44,249 bases of DNA, taken from Alphaproteobacteria bacterium. Its GTDB lineage: Bacteria > Pseudomonadota > Alphaproteobacteria > UBA11073. A model generated the notes under the pieces. That model did no database searches. It saw only the letters and a program-made list of their open reading frames with translations, and was not told the DNA's origin. The DNA is taken from positions 1-44,249 of the forward strand of contig JABDAM010000010.1 of assembly GCA_013289145.1 (NCBI GenBank), given 5' to 3'. Made by a program: the position numbers and the translations under genes. Below, one piece after another: positions 953 through 28,770 of this stretch; position 1 is the stretch's first letter, and each line of letters begins with the position of its first letter.

Positions 953-1528
953 ATGCCCAGACCAGACGATATATCATCCAAAACGGCGTTTTTAAAAATT
1001 ATTACGGGAACGACCGATGATCTTCGCGGAGATCTCGATATTATCACTAATGCTTTGGGACGGACTGGTAGGATGGGCAAGAGTTTGGGAAACTTTATTC
1101 ATGAGAATTTAGACCCCTATCAGTATCCGAGAGAAGAACTTGCAGTAAAAGCGTTTGATGATGCTGTCCATGGCAACCATGTTCGCCTCGCGCGCCTGAA
1201 ATTCACATTATTGGGGAATATGGAGGACGAAACAAAGGGGACGCCTGAACAAATAGAAGAGGAAATCGCATGGCATTGGGAAAAGGGAAGATTAAAGCCA
1301 ACGGATTTAGGGATCGGCAAAATTCAATTCGCCCGGGGACAGCCCAAAGGAAGACGGATGGCAGCTTTTATAAATATTAATAGGCCGACGATTGAGACGA
1401 TAACGCGACCTATGACAAAAGATGCGCATGCGCGCATTGCAAAAAAGAAATCTGAATCTCTGGCAAACGAGGGACCTCAGAGATCTGTAGTGTCCATACG
1501 TGAATTAACGCCATACAAACTGAATTAG
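953..1528 (+). CDS. Hypothetical protein, 191 residues, orphan
   Basis: I do not recognise this protein. It is charged and soluble-looking, with no signal peptide or membrane segment. Lysine, arginine, glutamate and aspartate are frequent, and the C-terminal third (around residues 125-190) is basic. The ATG at 953 is preceded by AAAGGAAA at a good ribosome-site distance. The gene lies on the plus strand among minus-strand genes, divergent from dnaX, and its TAG stop meets the 3' end of the ffs RNA on the other strand. Its codons are more A/T-rich than those of dnaX and dnaE, which suggests separate acquisition. I am fairly sure it is a gene because of its length, ribosome site and consistent frame, but no function can be assigned. 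Confidence 0.7.
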   Translation: MPRPDDISSKTAFLKIITGTTDDLRGDLDIITNALGRTGRMGKSLGNFIHENLDPYQYPREELAVKAFDDAVHGNHVRLARLKFTLLGNMEDETKGTPEQIEEEIAWHWEKGRLKPTDLGIGKIQFARGQPKGRRMAAFININRPTIETITRPMTKDAHARIAKKKSESLANEGPQRSVVSIRELTPYKLN

Positions 1529-1620
1529 GCACCCCCGCCGCGACCCGCGGCAAAATCGTTACGGCTGCTGCCTTTCGGCCCTGACCGGGTTGGCGCACGC
1601 CGCGCCCGCGGGGGGATACC
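1528..1620 (-). ncRNA. ffs: 4.5S signal recognition particle RNA (small bacterial SRP RNA)
   Basis: The minus strand carries the helix-8 signature of SRP RNA: GGTCAGGGCCGAAAGG followed by CAGCAGCC, around 1564-1588. The two ends (GGTATCCCCCCGC at the 5' side and GCGGCGGGGGTGCC at the 3' side) pair to close one long hairpin of about 93 nt, the size of the alphaproteobacterial form. The apical tetraloop reads GAAA rather than the more usual GGAA; both are GNRA loops. The RNA binds Ffh and targets ribosomes to the membrane. Ends are estimated from the terminal helix and may be off by a few bases. Confidence 0.92.
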
Positions 1621-1728: not shown

Positions 1729-4700
1729 AAATCTCCTCCACCCCCACCACGCCCTGCACCTGCGTAATCGCGTGGCGCTGGGTGGGTGGGACGCGGAAGC
1801 GGCCAGGGATTTGAATTTCCGTGCGCAGACCACCCGGGAGGAAGAGCGTCAGGAAAATTTCACCCTTGCCGGGCGGCAGGGCGGATAAAGTTTCTTTGAG
1901 CGCGGGGATCCCTTTTTCCGATTGCAAGGAAATCACCACACCGTCGGCAACATCCGCCGCCGCGGCTTCGAGCAATTGCACATCCTGCACCGTCAGGCGG
2001 TAGCCGTCGTCATTCGCTTGCGCATCGACCGACAGGATCAGCGTTTTGCCCGCCGCCAGAATATCGCGGTGGCGCAGCAGGATTTCGGCAAAGACCATCA
2101 CTTCATAGACGCCTGATGCATCCGACAATTGCACAAAGGCGAAACGGTTACCGGATTTGGCGGTTTTAATCGTCACGCCCACGACAACGCCCGCCAGTTT
2201 AACGCGCGAAGTGCGCGAACGCGCGAGCATATCTGCCAGGTCCGCATAACGCGCGACGTTGATACGTTTGAGCACGCGCGCAAAACTGTCGAGCGGGTGG
2301 GCGGAGAGATAAAACCCGACCGCGCCGAATTCCATTTGCAAAGCTTCAAGCATCGGCCATTGCGCCGTGGCGGGCAGCGCGGGCGCGGCCATGGTGACTT
2401 CTTCGCCAAACAGATTGCCCTGGCCGGATGATTGTTCCGCGCGCAGGGTTTGGGCGTATTTTAACAAAATATCCGCCCCGCCATGTGCGGCGGCACGGTT
2501 ATTAGTAACACCGTCAAACGCGCCGGCGGCGGCGAGCGCTTCCCATTGTTTTTTATTCATGCCATGCGCTACGCCGCGCCGCGCGATGTCGGCCAAGTCT
2601 TTAAACACGCCGTTGGCTTCGCGGTCCGCAACCATATTTTTCATCGATTCAAATCCGACGCCTTTGATCGCGCCCAACGCATAACGGATGGCGTATGTAT
2701 CGTCCGTGATTTTTTCGACCGCGAAATCCGCCGCGGATTTATTGATATCAGGCGGCAATAATTTGATATTCAAACGCTGCAATTCCTGCCGGAATTTAGC
2801 CAGTTTATCGGTATCGCCCAGATCGAGCGTCATCAGCGCGGCCATGAATTCGACGGGATAATGTGCTTTCAGGTATGCGGTTTGCCAGGCGATGAGCGCA
2901 TAGGCAGCCGCGTGGGATTTGTTAAAACCGTAACCCGCGAATTTATTCACCTGCTGGAAAATCATGCGCGCCTGATCGGCGTTCACATCATTCGCCACCG
3001 CGCCTTCGATAAAACTCTTTTCCTGTGCATCCATTTCGGATTGAATTTTTTTACCCATCGCGCGGCGCAGCAAATCCGCGCCGCCCAAACTATAACCCGC
3101 CAAAACCTGCGCGACCTGCATCACCTGTTCCTGATAGATCATAATGCCGTAGGTTTCGCGCAGAATGGGCTCAAGCGACGGGTGCAGATAATCCGGCGCT
3201 TCCTCACCATTTTTTACGGCGATGTATTTCGGAATGTTATCCATCGGGCCCGGTCGGTAAAGCGCGACAAGCGCGATGATGTCTTCAAACCGGTTGGGTT
3301 TCAGACGCCGCAGCGTGTCGCGCATCCCCGAACTCTCAAGCTGAAACACGCCAGATGCTTCGCCGCGCGCGAGCATGGCGAAGCTGTTGTCGTCGGAGAA
3401 TGGAATATCTTCCAGGCGCAGGTTAATGCCGCGCTGCGCCATATAAGCGAGCGTATATTGCAGCACGGTGAGGGTTTTCAGACCGAGGAAGTCGAATTTC
3501 ACGAGGCCGGAATTTTCCACATCCTTCATGCTGAATTGCGTCACAAGCGCATCGGAGCGCGGATCTTTATAGAGCGGAATGCGTTCAATCAACGCTTTAT
3601 CCCCGATGACAACACCCGCCGCGTGCGTGGAAGCATGGCGGTATAGCCCTTCCAATTGCAACGCGTAACCCATCATACGCGCGATGTTTTCGTCTTCCGC
3701 GCGTTGCTGTTGCAACATGGGTTCACCATCAATAGCTTCTTGCAGCGTCACCGGCGCGGCGGGATTGTTAGGCACCATTTTGCAAATGCGGTCCACAACC
3801 GGATAGGGAATTTGCAGCACGCGCCCAACATCGCGCAGCACTGCGCGCGCCTGAAGTTTTCCAAAGGTGATAATATGCGCGACGCGTTCGTTGCCATATT
3901 TGCGGCGGACGTATTCAATGACTTCATCGCGGCGTTCCTGGCAGAAATCAATATCGAAATCCGGCATGGAAACGCGTTCGGGATTTAAAAAGCGTTCAAA
4001 CAGCAATCCGAATTGGATCGGATTCAAATCCGTAATCGTCAGGGCCCAGGCTGCAACAGATCCCGCGCCCGAACCACGGCCAGGGCCAACGGGAATATTT
4101 TGCGCCTTCGCCCATTGGATGAAATCTGCGACGATCAAAAAATATCCGGCAAAGCCCATTTGAATGATCACGTCGAGTTCAAATTCCAATCGCGCGCGGT
4201 ATTGTTCCTGATCTTCGGACGGGATGGCGGCGGCGGTCAGACGTTCATCCAGCCCGCGGCGCGCCTGATTGCGCAGGAGTTCGGGTTCGCCCAGGCCATC
4301 TTCATGCGGAAATGGCGGCAGGGTCGGATTGGATTTTCTCGGCGCATAGGCACAACGCTGAGCGATCAGTATCGTGTTCTCAATCGCCTCGGGCAGGTCG
4401 GAAAAGAGTTCCGCCATTTGCTCAGCCGACTTGAAATAATGCTGCGACGTTTCGCGGCGGCGGTCCTGTTCCACCACATAACGGCCACCTGCGATGCAGA
4501 GCAGCGCGTCATGCGCTTCGTAAACTTCCTCAGCGGCGAAATAAACGTCATTAGTCGCGACGATGGGGATGTCATGCGCATAGGCCAGATTAATCAGCGC
4601 GTTTTCCAATTGCCGTTCTTCGTTGATATCATGGCGCTGGATTTCGATATAAAGACGGTTGGGAAAAATGGCCGCGAGTGTTTTCGCGATTTCTTCCGCA

Positions 4701-18271: not shown

Positions 18272-19135
18272 TCATCCCGAAAGGCCGCCGGGGAAGAAAT
18301 TTTCCCCTTTTCTTAAAGGCTGCGGGTATGCATTCATTTTGGCGACAGGCTGGAAATTGGGGAGGGCCTCCGTACAGCCCCGCTCCAAGAAATAAATATT
18401 GCCGTTTTCAGGATCAACGCCGACATTGCTCGCATGTAATTCAAAATTTGGCTTAAAGCCTTTCTGGGTTAAATAACCTTTGCAAGTTTCCAGAATGCCA
18501 TCAAATAAAATTTTTGTTTCATCTTCTCCAAAGGCGGCTTTAAAATCGGACGCCGTCAGCAGTCGCGGCAAACATTCGATTTTCACATATATTTGCTCCC
18601 TGATCAAAGCCAAAGGATCGTCTAAAGCTATCGCATCATGAATAGCCGGATTATTCAGAAGCGATGGATCATTCCCCGCTTTCTCAAATTGCGTTTTTCC
18701 TGTCGCGCCGGCCGGAGTAACAGGATTAAAGGGAATTTTGGCAATAAAGTCCGGCTCAACATACGGTTGGGTTTTATCTAAATCTTCGGCTAAATCATGC
18801 CCGCTCCAGGCGGTTAGGCGGATAATCTTGCCTTGGCATAAAAACACCATGGCTTCGTTAGAATAAGCGACTAGCTCCAGATCGATATTGCCAAAGGCTT
18901 TTTCCAATCTGCCGGAAATATCCAGCCCCTCATCGTCTGCCGCTTTTATTTTATCGTGTATCCGGCAGCCGAAGCGATGTTTTCCGGGTAAACTTTGCAA
19001 TCCGGCGGGGTCGGAGAATGCATTTAACCACTCGGCCATATTTTGCATAGGCGTAGGGTCAGGAAAGGCTGGCATAAGCGCGCTTTTCAGCCGCAAAGGG
19101 GCGGCGGGATCGGCCATGATTTCCCAATCAGACAT
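18272..19135 (-). CDS. Hypothetical protein, 287 residues, inserted between nuoK and nuoL
   Basis: I do not recognise this protein. It is soluble with no signal peptide. The C-terminal half (about residues 205-262: EIRE-like charged helices, then FELHASNVGVDPENGNIYFLE) faintly resembles the catalytic-loop and metal-site region of a kinase-like fold, with an N plus acidic residues, but this is only a visual impression. It breaks the usual nuoK-nuoL adjacency, is more A/T-rich than the flanking nuo genes, and has no ribosome site before its ATG. A perfect TATAAT (19142-19147) lies only 7 bases upstream, which could give a leaderless message. Its last codons overlap the TGTCATCCCG repeat sequence found elsewhere in the window. 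Confidence 0.72.
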   Translation of the reverse strand: MSDWEIMADPAAPLRLKSALMPAFPDPTPMQNMAEWLNAFSDPAGLQSLPGKHRFGCRIHDKIKAADDEGLDISGRLEKAFGNIDLELVAYSNEAMVFLCQGKIIRLTAWSGHDLAEDLDKTQPYVEPDFIAKIPFNPVTPAGATGKTQFEKAGNDPSLLNNPAIHDAIALDDPLALIREQIYVKIECLPRLLTASDFKAAFGEDETKILFDGILETCKGYLTQKGFKPNFELHASNVGVDPENGNIYFLERGCTEALPNFQPVAKMNAYPQPLRKGENFFPGGLSG

Positions 19136-19511: not shown

Positions 19512-20134
19512 GCGTTGCCCTCCTCTGGAATTTCGACGCCCGTGCCGACGGTAACGTGGACCATGTGGACGGTTTCCTCCGCTGTGCGCTGAGTCTGCGC
19601 GGCGACGGACTGGCGGCGCGTATCGCTGCGGTGACGCTGGGTCAGGACAATCGCGCCGATCATGGCGACGAGCAAAATCACGCCGGAAATCTGGAAGATG
19701 TAAAAGTAATCGGTATAAAGAACACGGCCCAGCGCGGCGGTATTCGTGACATTGCCGGGGTTGGGAATTGGCGCGTGCGGCGAGGCCAGCAAATGCGGCC
19801 AGGCGTTAATGACAAAAATCAATTGCGCGAGCAGCACGCCGCCCACGGCCAAACCGAACGGCAGAATTTTGATAAATCCCGCGCGCAGCTGGGCAAAATT
19901 CACGTCCAGCATCATGACGACGAACAGGAACAACACCGCCACCGCGCCGACATAGACAATCACCATAATCATGGCCAAGAATTCCGCGCCGAGCAGCAGC
20001 ATCAAACCAGCCGCATTAAAGAAACATAAAATCAGCAGCAGCACCGAATGCACCGGGTTACGCGCAAACACCACTCCCGCCGCCGCGAGCAGCAGCACCG
20101 TGGAAAACAAATAAAAGGCGATTTGCGTGATCAT
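19508..20134 (-). CDS. nuoJ: NADH-quinone oxidoreductase subunit J
   Basis: Membrane subunit of complex I with five helices, about 208 residues. The helix-3 motif [20 protein letters not shown] is characteristic. The start at 20134 overlaps the stop of the upstream binding-protein gene as ATGA. The open frame extends 11 codons further upstream, but those lie in the other gene and are not NuoJ-like. Normally nuoJ follows nuoI directly; here it follows a transporter gene. Confidence 0.95.
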
Positions 20135-21258
20135 TGGGTTGCCTTTGTCACTTTGCCGTTGCGCCATTCATAGACTTGTTCCGGCGGTCCGACATAACCG
20201 CCTTTTGAGTCAAATTGCCCATCCCCAACGATAGTCGATAGTTTTTGATGATGCAAAACATCGCCTACTTTCTGAGGATCCAGGCTTCCGGCCTTGTTCA
20301 TCGCATCAGCAAGAATTTCCATTGTTATGTAGGCATAGAGTCCAGCTGAATCGGAGGGGATTTTTTTGCTTTTAATCAGTTGCGTCAGCTTTTCGCTCCC
20401 CGAAACATCTTCCGGTAAAGGGACGCTGGCAAATTTTACGCCGTTCCCATATTCCCCGGCGATGGAGAAAAAATCCGGAGCTGAAATCGTTGTCGCAGCC
20501 ATTATTGGCATCTGGCTCCCTGCATCCCGTAGCTGACGAACGATCAGTCCGGCTTCCACTTGATACCCCGAATAAAACAAAAGGGACGGTTTAGCGTCCA
20601 TAACCCTTGTCATAACTGAGCTGAAATCTTTTTCCCCTGCATTAATCTTTTCGTGCATGACCACTTTAATATTTTTTTCCACTAAATCCTTCGCCAGCAA
20701 ATTAGCAATGGATTCCGAATAGGTTTGCTTATCATCAATGATTGCAACACCTCCCTTTGTATCATAATGACCGGCAATATATTTTGCATCCAGTCCGGCT
20801 TCTTCTTCATCACTGGACCAGACACGGAAAATGTTCGGCTGCTTGCCATCGGCAATGGCCGGATTACTGGCAAAAGACGACAACATTAATATATCTTCAT
20901 TTGAAAAAGCCTGTTTCGTCGCCAATGTTGCGCCGGAGCAAGATGCCCCTACGACAAATTTTATTTTGTCCGCAATGATTTTGTTTGCGACTGTCACAGC
21001 CTGTTTTGGATCACAAGCGTCATCAATAATTTCGATGTTTATCTGACGTCCAAGAATGCCGCCTTTATCATTGATGTTTTTCGCGGAAGATTTGACAGCA
21101 TTGGCGGATATTTCTCCAAAAGACGCAACAGAACCCGACATAGGTGCGATGAGCGCAATTTTAATTGACTCTTTGTTATCTGTTTGATCGGACGCAAAAC
21201 CAAGGCCTGCCGCAGTTAAAGCGCAGGTAAAAACAGCTAGGGCGAAGATTTTTTTCAT
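20131..21258 (-). CDS. Branched-chain amino acid-type ABC transporter substrate-binding protein, within the nuo operon
   Basis: Periplasmic type-I binding protein of the LivJ/LivK family, 375 residues, a complete length. It has a signal peptide ([20 protein letters not shown], cleavage near FA-SD). The N-terminal domain opens [20 protein letters not shown], then [18 protein letters not shown], and [13 protein letters not shown]. The C-terminal end is [20 protein letters not shown]. The true ligand is unknown. No permease or ATPase gene accompanies it. Both ends overlap nuo genes by ATGA, nuoI upstream and nuoJ downstream, so it is embedded without any gap. Its codons are more A/T-rich than those of nuoI and nuoJ. 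Confidence 0.92.
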
Positions 21259-22762: not shown

Positions 22763-24811
22763 CTAAGCCGCCTTCCGCTCTGCCTGCGGCATTAATTCCA
22801 CGACGCATTTCGCCATGGTTTCGCTGGCGCGTGCGATGGCGTTGGTTTGATAGAAATTCGCAAAGGCGGGCTGGAAAGGCGTTGGGTCAATTGGCCCGGG
22901 CGTGCCGAATTCCGCCATTTCAGCGGCAACGATTTTACCGATGTGACGGAAAGTGGGCGCAACATTCGCCAGATCCGCGCGCACATCCGCAATCGTGGTG
23001 TAATTCAACGGCGCGCCGACGTAATCCGATAACGCGCGGATGATTTTCCAATCCTCACGCGCCTCGCCGGGCGGGAAGACGGCCTGGCGCGCGTGCTGTG
23101 CGCGGCCTTCGGTATTCACATAAGTTGCGTTCTTTTCGGTATAAGCCGCGCCGGGCAAAATCACATCGGCGTGACCAGCGGCGCGGTCGCCGTGGTGGCC
23201 CTGGTAAATCACAAAGGCGCCTTTGAGTTTCTCAACATCCACTTCATCCGCGCCGAGCAGGTAAACGGCTTTCACCTGACCACCCGCAACGCCTTGATAA
23301 ATCTTGCCGATATCGCGTCCGGCAGGCGGCATGAAACCCACGGCCAGCGCCGTCGGCAAGCCGATTTGCGCGTGCAGGACATTGAAACCGTTCCACGCCC
23401 CGCGCATCAGATATTTTTGCGCGATACGCGAAGCCGCCGCATGCACCGCGCCGCCGTCCTTTCGGGCCAAGGCGGAAATACCCACGATCATCATCGGATT
23501 TTTCACGGCGGCCAGACGGTCCGCGATGGGATGGCGCCCTTCCGCAACCTGTTGCAGCAGCGTTGAAACATCGCCCAGTTGTTCGGCGGGATAAGTCAGA
23601 TCGTATGCCGTGCCGATATTGGCAACTTCGCAATTGCCGCTATTCACGCGTTTTAAAATACGCGCGTTCAGCACAGCGGCCTCGGTGCGCGGGTTCGTGC
23701 CGACCAGCAAAATCAAATCCGCCTGGTCGATGCTGGCGATGGTGGAATTAAACGTCCAGCCAGAGGGTTGCGAAACATCAAACGTCTCACCGCGCTGGCG
23801 GCATTCCATGTTTTGCGAACCGAGCGTCTCCAGCCAGCGGCGCAGCGCCAAAATTTCTTCCGCCGCCGCCAGATCGCCCGTCACGCCCGCGATCGCATCA
23901 CCGCGCAGACCTGTTAATTTTTCCTGCATATGACGAAACGCATCATCCCACGAAACTGGCGTGAGTTTCCCCCGCACGCGAATGTATGGCATGTCGAGGC
24001 GCTGGCGTTTCAAGCCGTCCAGCGCAAAACGCGTGCGGTCTGAAATCCATTCCTCGTTAATATCTTCATTCAGGCGCGGCAGGATGCGCATCACTTCGCC
24101 GCCGCGCGCATCAACGCGGATAGCTGACCCCAGCGCATCCATCACATCCACCGATTCCGTTTTGCGCAGCTCCCACGGGCGCGCCTTAAACGCATAGGGT
24201 TTGCTCGTCAAAGCACCCACCGGGCAAACATCAATCATATTGCCCGACAGCTCGCTGCTCACCGCCGCCTCAATATAAGGCCCGATTTCCGCGTGTTCGC
24301 CGCGGAACATTTGGCCCATTTCACTATTCCCCGCCACTTCCTCAGAAAACCGGACGCAGCGCGTGCAATTGATACAGCGGTTCATGGAGGTTTTAATCAG
24401 CGGCCCCAATTCCTTATCCACCACTGCGCGTTTGTTTTCCTCAAACCTGCTGCGGTCAAAACCATAGGCCATGGCCTGATCCTGCAAATCACATTCCCCG
24501 CCCTGGTCGCAAATGGGGCAATCCAGCGGGTGGTTGATGAGCAGGAATTCCATCACGCCCTTGCGCGCCTTATGCACCATTTCGCTGCCGGTCAGGACTT
24601 CCATTTTATCGGCGCAGGCCATGGCGCAGGACGCCACCGGTTTCGGCGCGCCTTTGACCTGAACCAGGCACATGCGGCAATTCGCCGGAACGGACAATTT
24701 ATCGTGATAGCAAAAGCGCGGGACCTCTATCCCCAATTGCTCACAGGCCTGGAGGATGGAAGTCCCCGGCTCAACTTCAAGGCTGACGCCATCGATGACA
24801 ACTGTGGGCAT
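22763..24811 (-). CDS. nuoG: NADH-quinone oxidoreductase subunit G
   Basis: Largest peripheral subunit of complex I, 682 residues as in mitochondria-like alphaproteobacterial forms. The N-terminal ferredoxin domain binds a [2Fe-2S] cluster (C34, C45, C48, C62). Next comes a histidine-ligated [4Fe-4S] site (H94, C98, C101, C107), then another [4Fe-4S] site (C146, C149, C152, C196). The rest is a molybdopterin-oxidoreductase-like domain without the extra N7 cluster motif. The ATG at 24811 is the first gene of its transcription unit because a plus-strand gene separates it from nuoF, so a promoter within 24812-24977 is required. Confidence 0.96.
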   Translation of the reverse strand: MPTVVIDGVSLEVEPGTSILQACEQLGIEVPRFCYHDKLSVPANCRMCLVQVKGAPKPVASCAMACADKMEVLTGSEMVHKARKGVMEFLLINHPLDCPICDQGGECDLQDQAMAYGFDRSRFEENKRAVVDKELGPLIKTSMNRCINCTRCVRFSEEVAGNSEMGQMFRGEHAEIGPYIEAAVSSELSGNMIDVCPVGALTSKPYAFKARPWELRKTESVDVMDALGSAIRVDARGGEVMRILPRLNEDINEEWISDRTRFALDGLKRQRLDMPYIRVRGKLTPVSWDDAFRHMQEKLTGLRGDAIAGVTGDLAAAEEILALRRWLETLGSQNMECRQRGETFDVSQPSGWTFNSTIASIDQADLILLVGTNPRTEAAVLNARILKRVNSGNCEVANIGTAYDLTYPAEQLGDVSTLLQQVAEGRHPIADRLAAVKNPMMIVGISALARKDGGAVHAAASRIAQKYLMRGAWNGFNVLHAQIGLPTALAVGFMPPAGRDIGKIYQGVAGGQVKAVYLLGADEVDVEKLKGAFVIYQGHHGDRAAGHADVILPGAAYTEKNATYVNTEGRAQHARQAVFPPGEAREDWKIIRALSDYVGAPLNYTTIADVRADLANVAPTFRHIGKIVAAEMAEFGTPGPIDPTPFQPAFANFYQTNAIARASETMAKCVVELMPQAERKAA

Positions 24812-24873
24812 ATTCTGTTCCGCGTACCGAACGTTCTGTTTGGGTTATTCCTAATACGTTAACCGGAATTTGA

Positions 24874-24899
24874 ATAGGGTAATTCTAGAATTACCCTAT
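24874..24899. promoter_or_regulatory. Perfect 26-base palindrome between nuoG and the divergent orphan
   Basis: The 13-base half-site beginning ATAGGGTAATTCT is repeated exactly in inverted orientation with no spacer. It lies 63 bases upstream of the nuoG ATG and 79 bases upstream of the plus-strand gene, in an A/T-rich gap that must hold promoters for both. On the minus strand TTGCAG and TATAGG hexamers flank its upstream side with an 18-base spacing; on the plus strand TTGACT begins at 24907. It could be an operator for a dimeric repressor or a mark left by insertion of the orphan. Function is inferred. Confidence 0.6.
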
Positions 24900-24977
24900 A
24901 AATTTCTTGACTTGCCCGCTGCAAATATGCTCGATTGCCGCAATTCGTTCTTAACTTAAATTGTAAGGGATTACCTT

Positions 24978-25565
24978 ATGACTGCAGGATTTTTGGCAAA
25001 ACTATTTAGGCGCAAATCAGCCGGCCAAACTATTCCGGCTATTTCGGCGGGCTCGCAGGTTCCTGTGATTGTGGAATTGATTAAGCCTCTGCCCAATGGA
25101 GGCCGCATTATTGCCGTTATGCCTGATGATATTCTATCAATTCAGGACAGAGACGCTATAGCCGCACATTTAGTTGGGCGTCTTCATCCTGATATCAAGA
25201 ATAGCATCCAAATCAAATCCGGAGACTCTCAGGCAAAAGCAAGACATGCAAGGTATGGCGGCCAATGGGAATTAGAGACGGTACATGATACGAAACAACT
25301 AAAACTCGCCGTCAGGGCTGCTTCCATTGGAACACCGGATGGCGAACCGATCAATTTAACGCTCACAAAACCGGAGGAAGTTTTATCTGAAACAGCGAGA
25401 ATTGCCTCTGCATTTGGAATCGAACCAAAAGCTTTGGTGCTTGCTCTTTGTTCAAGTTCCGCAGCAGAGCTTGCAGCTTTTGGATTAACAACCCCTGAAG
25501 TTCTTGAACTTGGCGAAAAAATACTTCATGTACGCAATTCAACTCACCGGCAAGCACTTCCCTGA
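24978..25565 (+). CDS. Hypothetical protein, 195 residues, plus-strand insert between nuoF and nuoG
   Basis: I recognise no family. The protein is soluble with a short basic start (LAKLFRRKSAG), then alternating strands and helices (VPVIVELIKPLPNGGRIIAV, then DRDAIAAHLVGRLHPDIKNS) and a helical C-terminus. The ATG at 24978 follows TAAGGGA at ribosome-site distance. It is convergent with nuoF, with stops only 3 bases apart, and divergent from nuoG. It is more A/T-rich than both neighbours and was probably acquired. Its orientation means it cannot be part of the nuo transcript and that nuoEF and nuoG-N are two transcripts. Confidence 0.75.
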   Translation: MTAGFLAKLFRRKSAGQTIPAISAGSQVPVIVELIKPLPNGGRIIAVMPDDILSIQDRDAIAAHLVGRLHPDIKNSIQIKSGDSQAKARHARYGGQWELETVHDTKQLKLAVRAASIGTPDGEPINLTLTKPEEVLSETARIASAFGIEPKALVLALCSSSAAELAAFGLTTPEVLELGEKILHVRNSTHRQALP

Positions 25566-25568
25566 CAA

Positions 25569-26843
25569 CTAGGCTGCAACCGTCACGCGCCCACGCAGCC
25601 GCTTCTCAATCTCCGGCCGGAAATGGCGGATTAATCCCTGGATAGGCCAGGCCGCCGCGTCGCCGAGGGCGCAGATGGTGTGGCCTTCGATTTCTTTGGT
25701 CACGTCGAGGAGGTTGTCGATATCTTTGCTTTCAGCATTCCCCGTCACAAAACGTTCCATGACGCGCCAGAGCCAGCCGGTGCCTTCGCGGCAGGGGGTG
25801 CATTGGCCGCAGCTCTCGTGCATGTAGAATTTCGCCAGGCGCGCGATGGCTTTGATCAGATCGGTCGACTTATCCATGACAATCACGCCCGCAGTTCCGA
25901 GGCCCGATTGCACCGCGCGCAGGCTGTCGAAATCCATCAGGACCGTGTCGCAGATTTCTTTTGGAATCATCGGTGTGGACGAGCCGCCGGGGATGACGGC
26001 CAAAATATTATCCCAGCCGCCGCGCACGCCGCCCGCGTGTTTTTCAATCAGGTCGCGCAGGGGGATGCCCATTTCTTCCTCAACATTGCAGGGTTTATTC
26101 ACATGCCCCGATATGCAGAAAATTTTCGTGCCCGTGTTTTTCTCTCGCCCCAAACCCGCGAACCACGCGGGACCGCGCCGCAAAATCGTCGGCACGACGG
26201 CGATAGATTCGACGTTATTCACCGTTGTCGGACAAGAATATAAACCCGAGCCCGCCGGGAACGGCGGCTTATTACGCGGCTGGCCTTTTTTGCCTTCCAG
26301 GCTTTCAATCAGCGCGGTTTCCTCGCCGCAAATGTATGCGCCCATGCCGCGGTGCAGATAAACATCGCAATCAAAACCACTGCCGCAGGCGTTTTTGCCG
26401 ATCAGGCCGGCGGCATAAGCCTCATCAATCGCGCGTTGCAGGTTGCTGCACTCGCCCGCGAATTCGCCGCGCACGTAAATGTAACAAGCATTCGCCCCGA
26501 TGGCGTAACAGGCGATCAAACAGCCTTCGATCAGTTTATGCGGATCGTGGCGCAGGATGTCGCGGTCTTTGCAGGTGCCCGGCTCGCCTTCATCGGCGTT
26601 CACCACCAGATAATGCGGCTTGCCGGAATCCTTGGGCATAAAAGACCATTTCATGCCCGTCGAAAACCCCGCGCCGCCGCGCCCGCGCAGGCCGGAAGCC
26701 TTGACCTCTTCAATGATCGCGTCTCGCCCCTTGGCCAGCAAATCTTTCGTCCCCGCCCAATCGCCGCGCGCCTTTGCGCCCGCCAAGCCCCAGTCTTGAA
26801 AGCCATAGAGGTTGGTGAAAATTCGGTCGGAATCTTTCAGCAT
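25569..26843 (-). CDS. nuoF: NADH-quinone oxidoreductase subunit F
   Basis: NADH-binding flavoprotein of complex I, 424 residues. It carries the NADH/FMN glycine-rich stretch [16 protein letters not shown] (51-66), [15 protein letters not shown], and [20 protein letters not shown] for flavin binding. The N3 [4Fe-4S] ligands are C345, C348, C351 ([11 protein letters not shown]) and C391. It is 3 bases downstream of nuoE and should be co-transcribed with it. Confidence 0.97.
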
Positions 26844-26846
26844 GTT

Positions 26847-27455
26847 TTACCCGTCATTCGCGGCTTTGACGGGCGCGGCCGGTTCGGAGGTATGGCGGCC
26901 GCTTTGCGGGCCTGCCTTAACTTCCTTGCCCACGGCCAGGTCCGTCAGAATTTTTTTGGTATTTTCCGGCGTCAGGTCTTCGTAATAAGTCGATGACGAT
27001 TTTGTATCCACCTGCATCATCGGCGCATTGACGCAAGCGCCCAGGCATTCGACTTCGCATAAGGTGAATTTTCCGTCTGCTGTTGTCTCGCCCAACTTGA
27101 CGCCCAAATGATCTTCACAGGCCTCAACAATCTTATCCGAGCCGCGCAGCCAGCAGGGCGTGGTGGTGCAAACCTGCACATGATACGTCCCCACGGGCGC
27201 AAGGTTATACATCGTGTAAAACGTCGCGACCTCATACACGCGCACGCGCGCCATGCCGAGCATTTCCGCCACATAATCCATCGCCGCGCGCGGCAGCCAA
27301 TTGTCGTTTTGCTGCTGCGCCAGATGGAGCAAGGGCATCACGGCCGATTGCTGAAACCCTTCGGGATATTTTTTAATGACTGCTTCGGCCTTGGCCAAGT
27401 TTTCCTTGGTAAAAGCAAAGGCGGCAGGTTGCTGGGGATTAAACAGGGCTTTCAT
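26847..27455 (-). CDS. nuoE: NADH-quinone oxidoreductase subunit E
   Basis: Thioredoxin-like [2Fe-2S] subunit of complex I, about 202 residues. Cluster N1a ligands are C96, C101, C137 and C141 (CTTTPC and CLGAC). The start at 27455 ([19 protein letters not shown]) has GGAAG about eight bases upstream. The frame extends 7 codons further but without a better ribosome site. It is the first nuo gene here; nuoD does not precede it. The C-terminal tail after about residue 165 is low-complexity. Confidence 0.95.
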
Positions 27456-27540
27456 CGAAGTTCTTCCGAACCCCATTCATACTGGCTCCCACCAAAGCTG
27501 GCAAGCTTGGGATGGTATTTTACCCGAAATAAATGTCAGC

Positions 27541-28733: not shown

Positions 28734-28770
28734 ATAACACTATTTGCCATGGCAAATGCAACAGTGTTAT
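28734..28770. promoter_or_regulatory. Nested inverted repeat in the hydrolase/cysteine desulfurase promoter gap
   Basis: An inner perfect 16-base palindrome, ATTTGCCATGGCAAAT (28742-28757), is enclosed by outer 8-base arms ATAACACT (28734-28741) and AGTGTTAT (28763-28770). It lies 12 bases before the desulfurase start and in the shared gap with the divergent hydrolase. It could be an operator for a dimeric regulator acting on both genes, or a leader hairpin of the desulfurase message. It does not match the Irr or RirA site patterns I know. Confidence 0.6.

What the first reader, a model, noticed from the sequence alone, without database searches (positions are those of the whole stretch)
24812..25568. 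Plus-strand orphan splits nuoF from nuoG, next to a perfect 26-base palindrome
nuoF and nuoG normally share a transcript. Here an A/T-rich orphan on the opposite strand separates them: its stop is 3 bases from that of nuoF, and its promoter region is shared with nuoG. Complex I synthesis must therefore use at least two promoters, and the palindrome is well placed to control nuoG and the orphan together. The orphan may be a regulator acting on this site.
Basis: partly seen in the sequence, partly recalled or inferred. Interest (0 to 1): 0.52.

Follow-up and report, generated by a model that had tools for sequence, protein, structure and literature searches.

The report
Orphan gene splitting complex I operon
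A small gene with no known relatives has settled backwards between two genes of the respiratory complex I operon, beside a one-of-a-kind mirror-image DNA sequence; the split is real, but this spot is often invaded by unrelated genes in related bacteria, and nothing shows that the orphan controls the operon.

Summary
Between nuoF (25569-26843, minus) and nuoG (22763-24811, minus) lies a 195-aa plus-strand ORF (24978-25565). A perfect 26-bp palindrome (24874-24899) sits in the 166-bp gap it shares with nuoG. The palindrome is far beyond chance (expected 0.0007 per window). It is unique in the assembly; its 20-bp core is absent from the two collections scanned. The ORF has no relative in any library or genome set searched, and the lowest GC3 of 32 window genes measured. 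No DNA-binding family was recognised; the structure model is too poor to judge. I read it as a recently acquired or newly arisen accessory gene with its own promoter region. Two more A/T-rich genes sit inside this nuo cluster and are absent from the one congener. The split is not unique: 17 of 149 class members (window included) have 300 bp or more between nuoF and nuoG, with unrelated cargo; in three genomes of another family an opposite-strand purL-purQ block makes the same convergent/divergent layout. The palindrome is most simply an operator-like dyad; an RNA hairpin or perfected quasi-palindrome is not excluded. "At least two promoters" is plausible but unproven.

The parts
24978..25565 (+). 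orphan gene, 195 aa, no known relatives; convergent with nuoF, divergent from nuoG
   Evidence: ORF; no relatives; GC3 and CAI lowest of 32 window genes measured
24874..24899 (.). perfect 26-bp palindrome, core of a longer imperfect inverted repeat
   Evidence: DNA fold of 24856-24914 z = -5.4; unique in own assembly; core absent from genome contigs and viral contigs
24812..24977 (.). 166-bp divergent intergenic region shared by nuoG and the orphan
   Evidence: no sigma-70-type promoter by the strict scan
22763..24811 (-). nuoG
   Evidence: TIGR01973, E 3.6e-220
25569..26843 (-). nuoF
   Evidence: NF010120, E 3.4e-247
26847..27476 (-). nuoE
   Evidence: TIGR01958, E 2.3e-56
20131..21258 (-). 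periplasmic-binding-protein gene inserted between nuoI and nuoJ, absent from the congener
   Evidence: PF13458, E 6.3e-48; nuoI-nuoJ contiguous in G001; GC3 0.431
18272..19135 (-). 287-aa gene of unknown family inserted between nuoK and nuoL, absent from the congener
   Evidence: no Pfam, PADLOC or PHROG match; no relative in 57 other genomes; nuoK-nuoL contiguous in G001; GC3 0.479

Best explanation
An accessory gene without known relatives has been inserted (or has arisen) in reverse orientation at the nuoF/nuoG joint, a place in the nuo operon that unrelated genes invade repeatedly in this class. It probably has its own promoter in the 166-bp gap shared with nuoG, and the 26-bp palindrome there is most simply a dyad operator for some dimeric DNA-binding protein encoded elsewhere, acting on the orphan, on nuoG, or on both. 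Shown: the ORF, its layout, the absence of relatives, its foreign codon usage, the rarity and uniqueness of the palindrome, other lineage-specific insertions in the same nuo cluster, and other insertions at the same joint. Inferred: recent origin, own promoter, operator role.
For: No relative in 57 other near genomes, in 385 class and 398 phylum genomes sampled, in the genome-contig scan, or in viral, phage and plasmid collections. GC3 0.347 and CAI 0.473 are the lowest of 32 window genes. Two further A/T-rich genes in the same nuo cluster are missing from congener G001, whose nuoI-J-K-L run is contiguous. 17 of 149 assessable class genomes, window included, have 300 bp or more at this joint, with unrelated cargo: GNAT (G100, G101), DUF29 (G270), CCDC90-like (G246), methyltransferases (G383), purL-purQ (G136, G236, G318). 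The palindrome is single-copy and lies in a divergent gap.
Against: The congener's contig starts inside nuoG, so the empty nuoF/nuoG joint was never seen in the genus. No promoter passes the strict scan. Expression is unknown. An operator with only one copy and no cross-genome conservation has no comparative support. Scored with the window's codon usage the ORF is best of six frames but still negative (-0.105 per codon).
Confidence: 0.6

Rival explanations
1. The orphan encodes a local regulator that binds the palindrome and controls nuoG and itself.
For: Classic divergent regulator-target layout; perfect dyad between the two start codons, single-copy in the assembly. Slight positive charge, predicted pI 8.8.
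Against: No DNA-binding domain in Pfam, PHROGs, NCBIfam or PADLOC; no PDB sequence relative. The low-confidence model gives no usable fold. The C-terminal helical part, where a helix-turn-helix might sit, has net charge -2.
Confidence: 0.08
2. The palindrome works as RNA: a hairpin in the leader of nuoG or of the orphan that affects mRNA stability or translation.
For: An 11-bp stem with a CUAG loop forms on either strand; the local DNA fold is far stronger than shuffles (z -5.4).
Against: Over the whole 166-nt gap the RNA fold is unremarkable (z -1.9 plus strand, -1.3 minus strand). Perfect loop-free symmetry is not needed by an RNA hairpin. No Rfam family matches. No U-tract follows it on the minus strand; the plus-strand scan hit has only a weak tail.
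Confidence: 0.2
3. The palindrome has no present function: a quasi-palindrome perfected by template switching, or a scar of the event that placed the orphan.
For: The inverted repeat continues imperfectly outside the perfect 26 bp (folds). It has no counterpart in 249 other class genomes with up to 3 mismatches on a 22-bp core, nor at the f136 nuoG/purL gaps.
Against: It sits exactly in a divergent promoter-sized gap. No flanking direct repeats of 12 or more were found in 24700-25700, and no transposase was recognised among the genes I identified.
Confidence: 0.25
4. Assembly artefact: the orphan segment was joined wrongly into the nuo contig of a draft genome.
For: Draft assembly of 60 contigs, 70% complete; GC differs from the flanks.
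Against: The insert fits exactly between intact nuoF and nuoG with no gene cut. Two other A/T-rich genes fit the nuo cluster just as cleanly; the PBP gene shares an ATGA overlap with the nuoI stop.
Confidence: 0.05

Closest known systems
Opposite-strand purL-purQ block between nuoF and nuoG in three genomes of family f136 (G136, G236, G318)
   Same: Same joint, same topology: opposite to nuo, starting 76-139 bp upstream of nuoG and converging on nuoF
   Different: Conserved purine-synthesis genes, not an orphan; no palindrome of the window's kind in the gap; in G136 and G236 further genes lie in the same interval
Same-strand inserts at the nuoF/nuoG joint of other class members (e.g. GNAT in G100 and G101, DUF29 in G270, a 112-147 aa family in G015, G147, G325, G245)
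   Same: Unrelated accessory genes at the same joint
   Different: Co-directional, many fitted tightly to the nuo genes, so the operon's transcript need not be broken
URFs of the Paracoccus denitrificans and Rhodobacter capsulatus nqo/nuo clusters (recalled from general knowledge; no paper in the library confirmed it)
   Same: Unidentified reading frames lying between complex I genes of Alphaproteobacteria
   Different: As I recall they are co-directional with the nuo genes; not compared here

Membership tests
Divergent autoregulated regulator gene with operator | gene encodes a DNA-binding protein | tested here: inconclusive
   No DNA-binding family; model pLDDT 43 cannot decide a fold
Divergent autoregulated regulator gene with operator | dyad-symmetric site in the shared promoter gap | tested here: met
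   26-bp perfect palindrome at 24874-24899
Divergent autoregulated regulator gene with operator | gene and site co-occur in relatives | tested here: inconclusive
   Neither was found elsewhere; the congener lacks the region
Accessory (orphan) gene inserted into an operon | no relatives in near genomes | tested here: met
Accessory (orphan) gene inserted into an operon | atypical codon usage or base composition | tested here: met
   Lowest GC3 and CAI of 32 genes
Accessory (orphan) gene inserted into an operon | empty joint in a close relative | tested here: inconclusive
   Joint not covered in the only congener; tight joint in most of the class
Dispersed palindromic repeat element (REP- or RPE-like) | many copies in the genome | tested here: not met
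   One copy with up to 3 mismatches
Bidirectional intrinsic terminator | lies between convergent genes, hairpin plus T-run | tested here: not met
   Lies between divergent genes; no minus-strand hit and only a weak plus-strand tail

The most novel reading that the evidence does not exclude
In this lineage complex I synthesis has been broken into separately controlled blocks by lineage-specific cargo genes, two of which (the orphan and the 287-aa gene) bring a dyad-flanked start region of their own. The orphan would be a new protein family that tunes or assists assembly of the NADH-dehydrogenase arm through the single-copy palindrome.
Probability: 0.08. Interest if true: 0.6.

Novelty: new member of a known kind. 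Interest (0 to 1): 0.27.

Why it matters
It documents that a joint in a very conserved respiratory operon is invaded again and again by unrelated genes, including opposite-strand ones in at least two families, so a split of nuoF from nuoG is tolerated. That is useful for anyone who infers operons or complex I regulation from gene order. If the palindrome were shown to control nuoG, it would be a new local control of complex I. As it stands the orphan is one of many lineage-specific genes.

Tried and rejected
Palindrome as a repeat family or genome-wide operator: rejected, one copy in the assembly and none in 249 other class genomes with up to 3 mismatches. Core 20-mer in public collections: none.

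Weak protein matches: Pfam CFAP161 (E 0.068) and SAM_EPH (E 0.22), both far below their cut-offs; two PDB hits at E 0.5 and 0.72; class hits in G366 (E 0.002) and G043 (E 0.0077). The last two are what about 385 searches give by chance. The G366 match was not recovered by tblastn, and the G043 match is a 62-residue stretch inside an 892-aa frame. Not used as relatives.

Structure: single-sequence AlphaFold2 model of mean pLDDT 43 and its Foldseek matches (best E 2.4) carry no information. Defence and phage libraries: nothing. Known RNA families: only an SRP RNA elsewhere in the window. Integron attC: read by eye only; the flanks do not show the core sites as I recall them. Literature: searches found nothing on inserts at nuoF/nuoG; passages of PMC9696053 and PMC13201721 were seen and do not bear on it. 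Lookup of the genus Micavibrio was a guess about the host and was not used.

Full report
What is there. The window is one whole contig (C10) of a draft assembly of 1.42 Mb in 60 contigs, about 70% complete. nuoE, nuoF, nuoG and nuoH are on the minus strand and pass NCBIfam models. Between nuoF and nuoG lie 757 bp: a 195-aa plus-strand ORF at 24978-25565, 3 bp from the nuoF stop, and a 166-bp gap towards nuoG. In that gap, at 24874-24899, is a perfect palindrome of 26 bp.

Is it more than chance? Yes for both. From base composition 0.0007 palindromes of this length are expected in the window and 0.023 in the assembly; 60 Markov-1 simulations never exceeded 22 bp, the second longest in the window is 16 bp, and about 400 kb of fetched loci held none of 20 bp or more except this same site in L052, which is the window's own DNA. 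Outside the perfect part the repeat goes on imperfectly; the DNA fold of 24856-24914 has z -5.4. Over the whole 166-nt gap the RNA fold is ordinary (z -1.9 and -1.3). An open frame of 195 codons or more arose in 0.001 of 2000 Markov-1 copies of the gap. The ORF's frame scores best of the six with the window's codon usage, though still negative (-0.105 per codon), and a Shine-Dalgarno-like AAGGGA precedes the ATG (by eye).

The orphan. It has no match worth the name in Pfam, PHROGs, NCBIfam or PADLOC or PDB sequences. It has none in 57 other near genomes, none I accept in 385 class genomes (two hits at E 0.002 and 0.008 that look like chance), none in 398 phylum genomes (these samples overlap), none in the genome contigs and viral-contig scans, which reach close relatives only, and none in phages and plasmids. 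Its GC3 (0.347) and CAI (0.473) are the lowest of 32 window genes measured, the CAI table having been trained on the other 31. It is soluble-looking, pI 8.8, net charge +2. The structure model (pLDDT 43) says nothing about its fold. That it is a regulator rests on layout alone.

The palindrome. It is single-copy in the assembly with up to 3 mismatches, its 20-bp core is absent from genome contigs and viral contigs, and a 22-bp core with up to 3 mismatches is in none of 249 other class genomes. This rules out a dispersed repeat and any regulon with near-identical sites; a weaker consensus is not tested. It lies between divergent starts, so it is not a terminator of either gene. By eye a TTGACT (24907-24912) follows it 7 bp downstream on the plus strand, but no promoter passes the strict scan. 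A dimeric protein's operator is the simplest reading of a loop-free perfect dyad in such a place; this is inference.

How special is the split? I listed nuoF and nuoG in 385 class genomes. The tool printed only the 150 best nuoG rows (of 313 genomes with a match) and the 150 best nuoF rows; 104 genomes, window included, had both rows on one contig and strand. Of the remaining 46 nuoG genomes, G020 was read from its own fetched contig and 44 from fetched stretches; G338 has the two genes on different contigs and was dropped. So 149 genomes were assessable. 17 of them, window included, have 300 bp or more between nuoF stop and nuoG start (337 to 6456 bp). Contents differ between families: GNAT acetyltransferases (G100, G101), DUF29 (G270), CCDC90-like (G246), two methyltransferases (G383), a 112-147 aa family shared by G015, G147, G325 and G245, an A/T-rich 173-aa protein without Pfam match (G115), a DUF4429-like weak match (G110), and others. 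In G136, G236 and G318, all of family f136, purL and purQ lie on the opposite strand, start 76-139 bp upstream of nuoG, and converge on nuoF: the window's layout with different genes. So opposite-strand splits occur in 4 of 149, from two families. No such palindrome is present in the f136 gaps. The sample is biased to genomes with nuoG most like the window's.

Not the only intruder. The same nuo cluster carries a periplasmic-binding-protein gene between nuoI and nuoJ and a 287-aa gene of unknown family between nuoK and nuoL, both low in GC3 (0.431, 0.479). In congener G001 nuoI, nuoJ, nuoK and nuoL are contiguous without either gene. The 287-aa gene has no relative in 57 other genomes and also has a dyad (TAAATGTC-N8-GACATTTA) before its start. 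G001's contig begins inside nuoG and its nuoF was not found, so the decisive empty joint could not be seen.

Promoters. The orphan makes an antisense stretch inside nuoE-to-N, so a second promoter before nuoG is likely. But no minus-strand terminator-like site was found between nuoF and nuoG, and read-through is not excluded.

Verdict. Real and well described, but of an ordinary kind: a lineage-specific gene in an operon joint that is invaded often. The palindrome is the least explained part. Steps shown: anatomy, rarity, absence of relatives, other insertions. Steps inferred: recent origin, own promoter, operator function. The Paracoccus and Rhodobacter URF comparison is recalled, not looked up; the searches found no paper on it.

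Noticed in passing
window 20131-21258 (-): A periplasmic binding protein gene (PF13458) sits between nuoI and nuoJ; its ATG overlaps the nuoI stop. It is absent from the congener's nuoI-nuoJ joint.
   Followed up: partly
window 18272-19135 (-): A 287-aa protein of unknown family between nuoK and nuoL, absent from the congener, with a dyad TAAATGTC-N8-GACATTTA and a TATAAT just before its start.
   Followed up: partly
window 28742-28757: The second longest perfect palindrome (16 bp, ATTTGCCATGGCAAAT) lies near the start of a class-V aminotransferase gene, in another divergent gap.
   Followed up: no
L046 1803-2046 (congener G001): The congener has its own extra small ORF, with a signal-peptide-like start, between nuoH and nuoI, where the window has none.
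   Followed up: no
L046 338-539 and about 3960-4185: The congener's contig has runs of N and what looks like a foreign stretch inside nuoL (part of nuoL is matched twice), so its assembly is imperfect there.
   Followed up: no
L064, L072, L074: Family f136 carries purL-purQ on the opposite strand between nuoF and nuoG in all three genera seen.
   Followed up: yes
window 1525-1620 (-): Bacterial small SRP RNA (RF00169).
   Followed up: no
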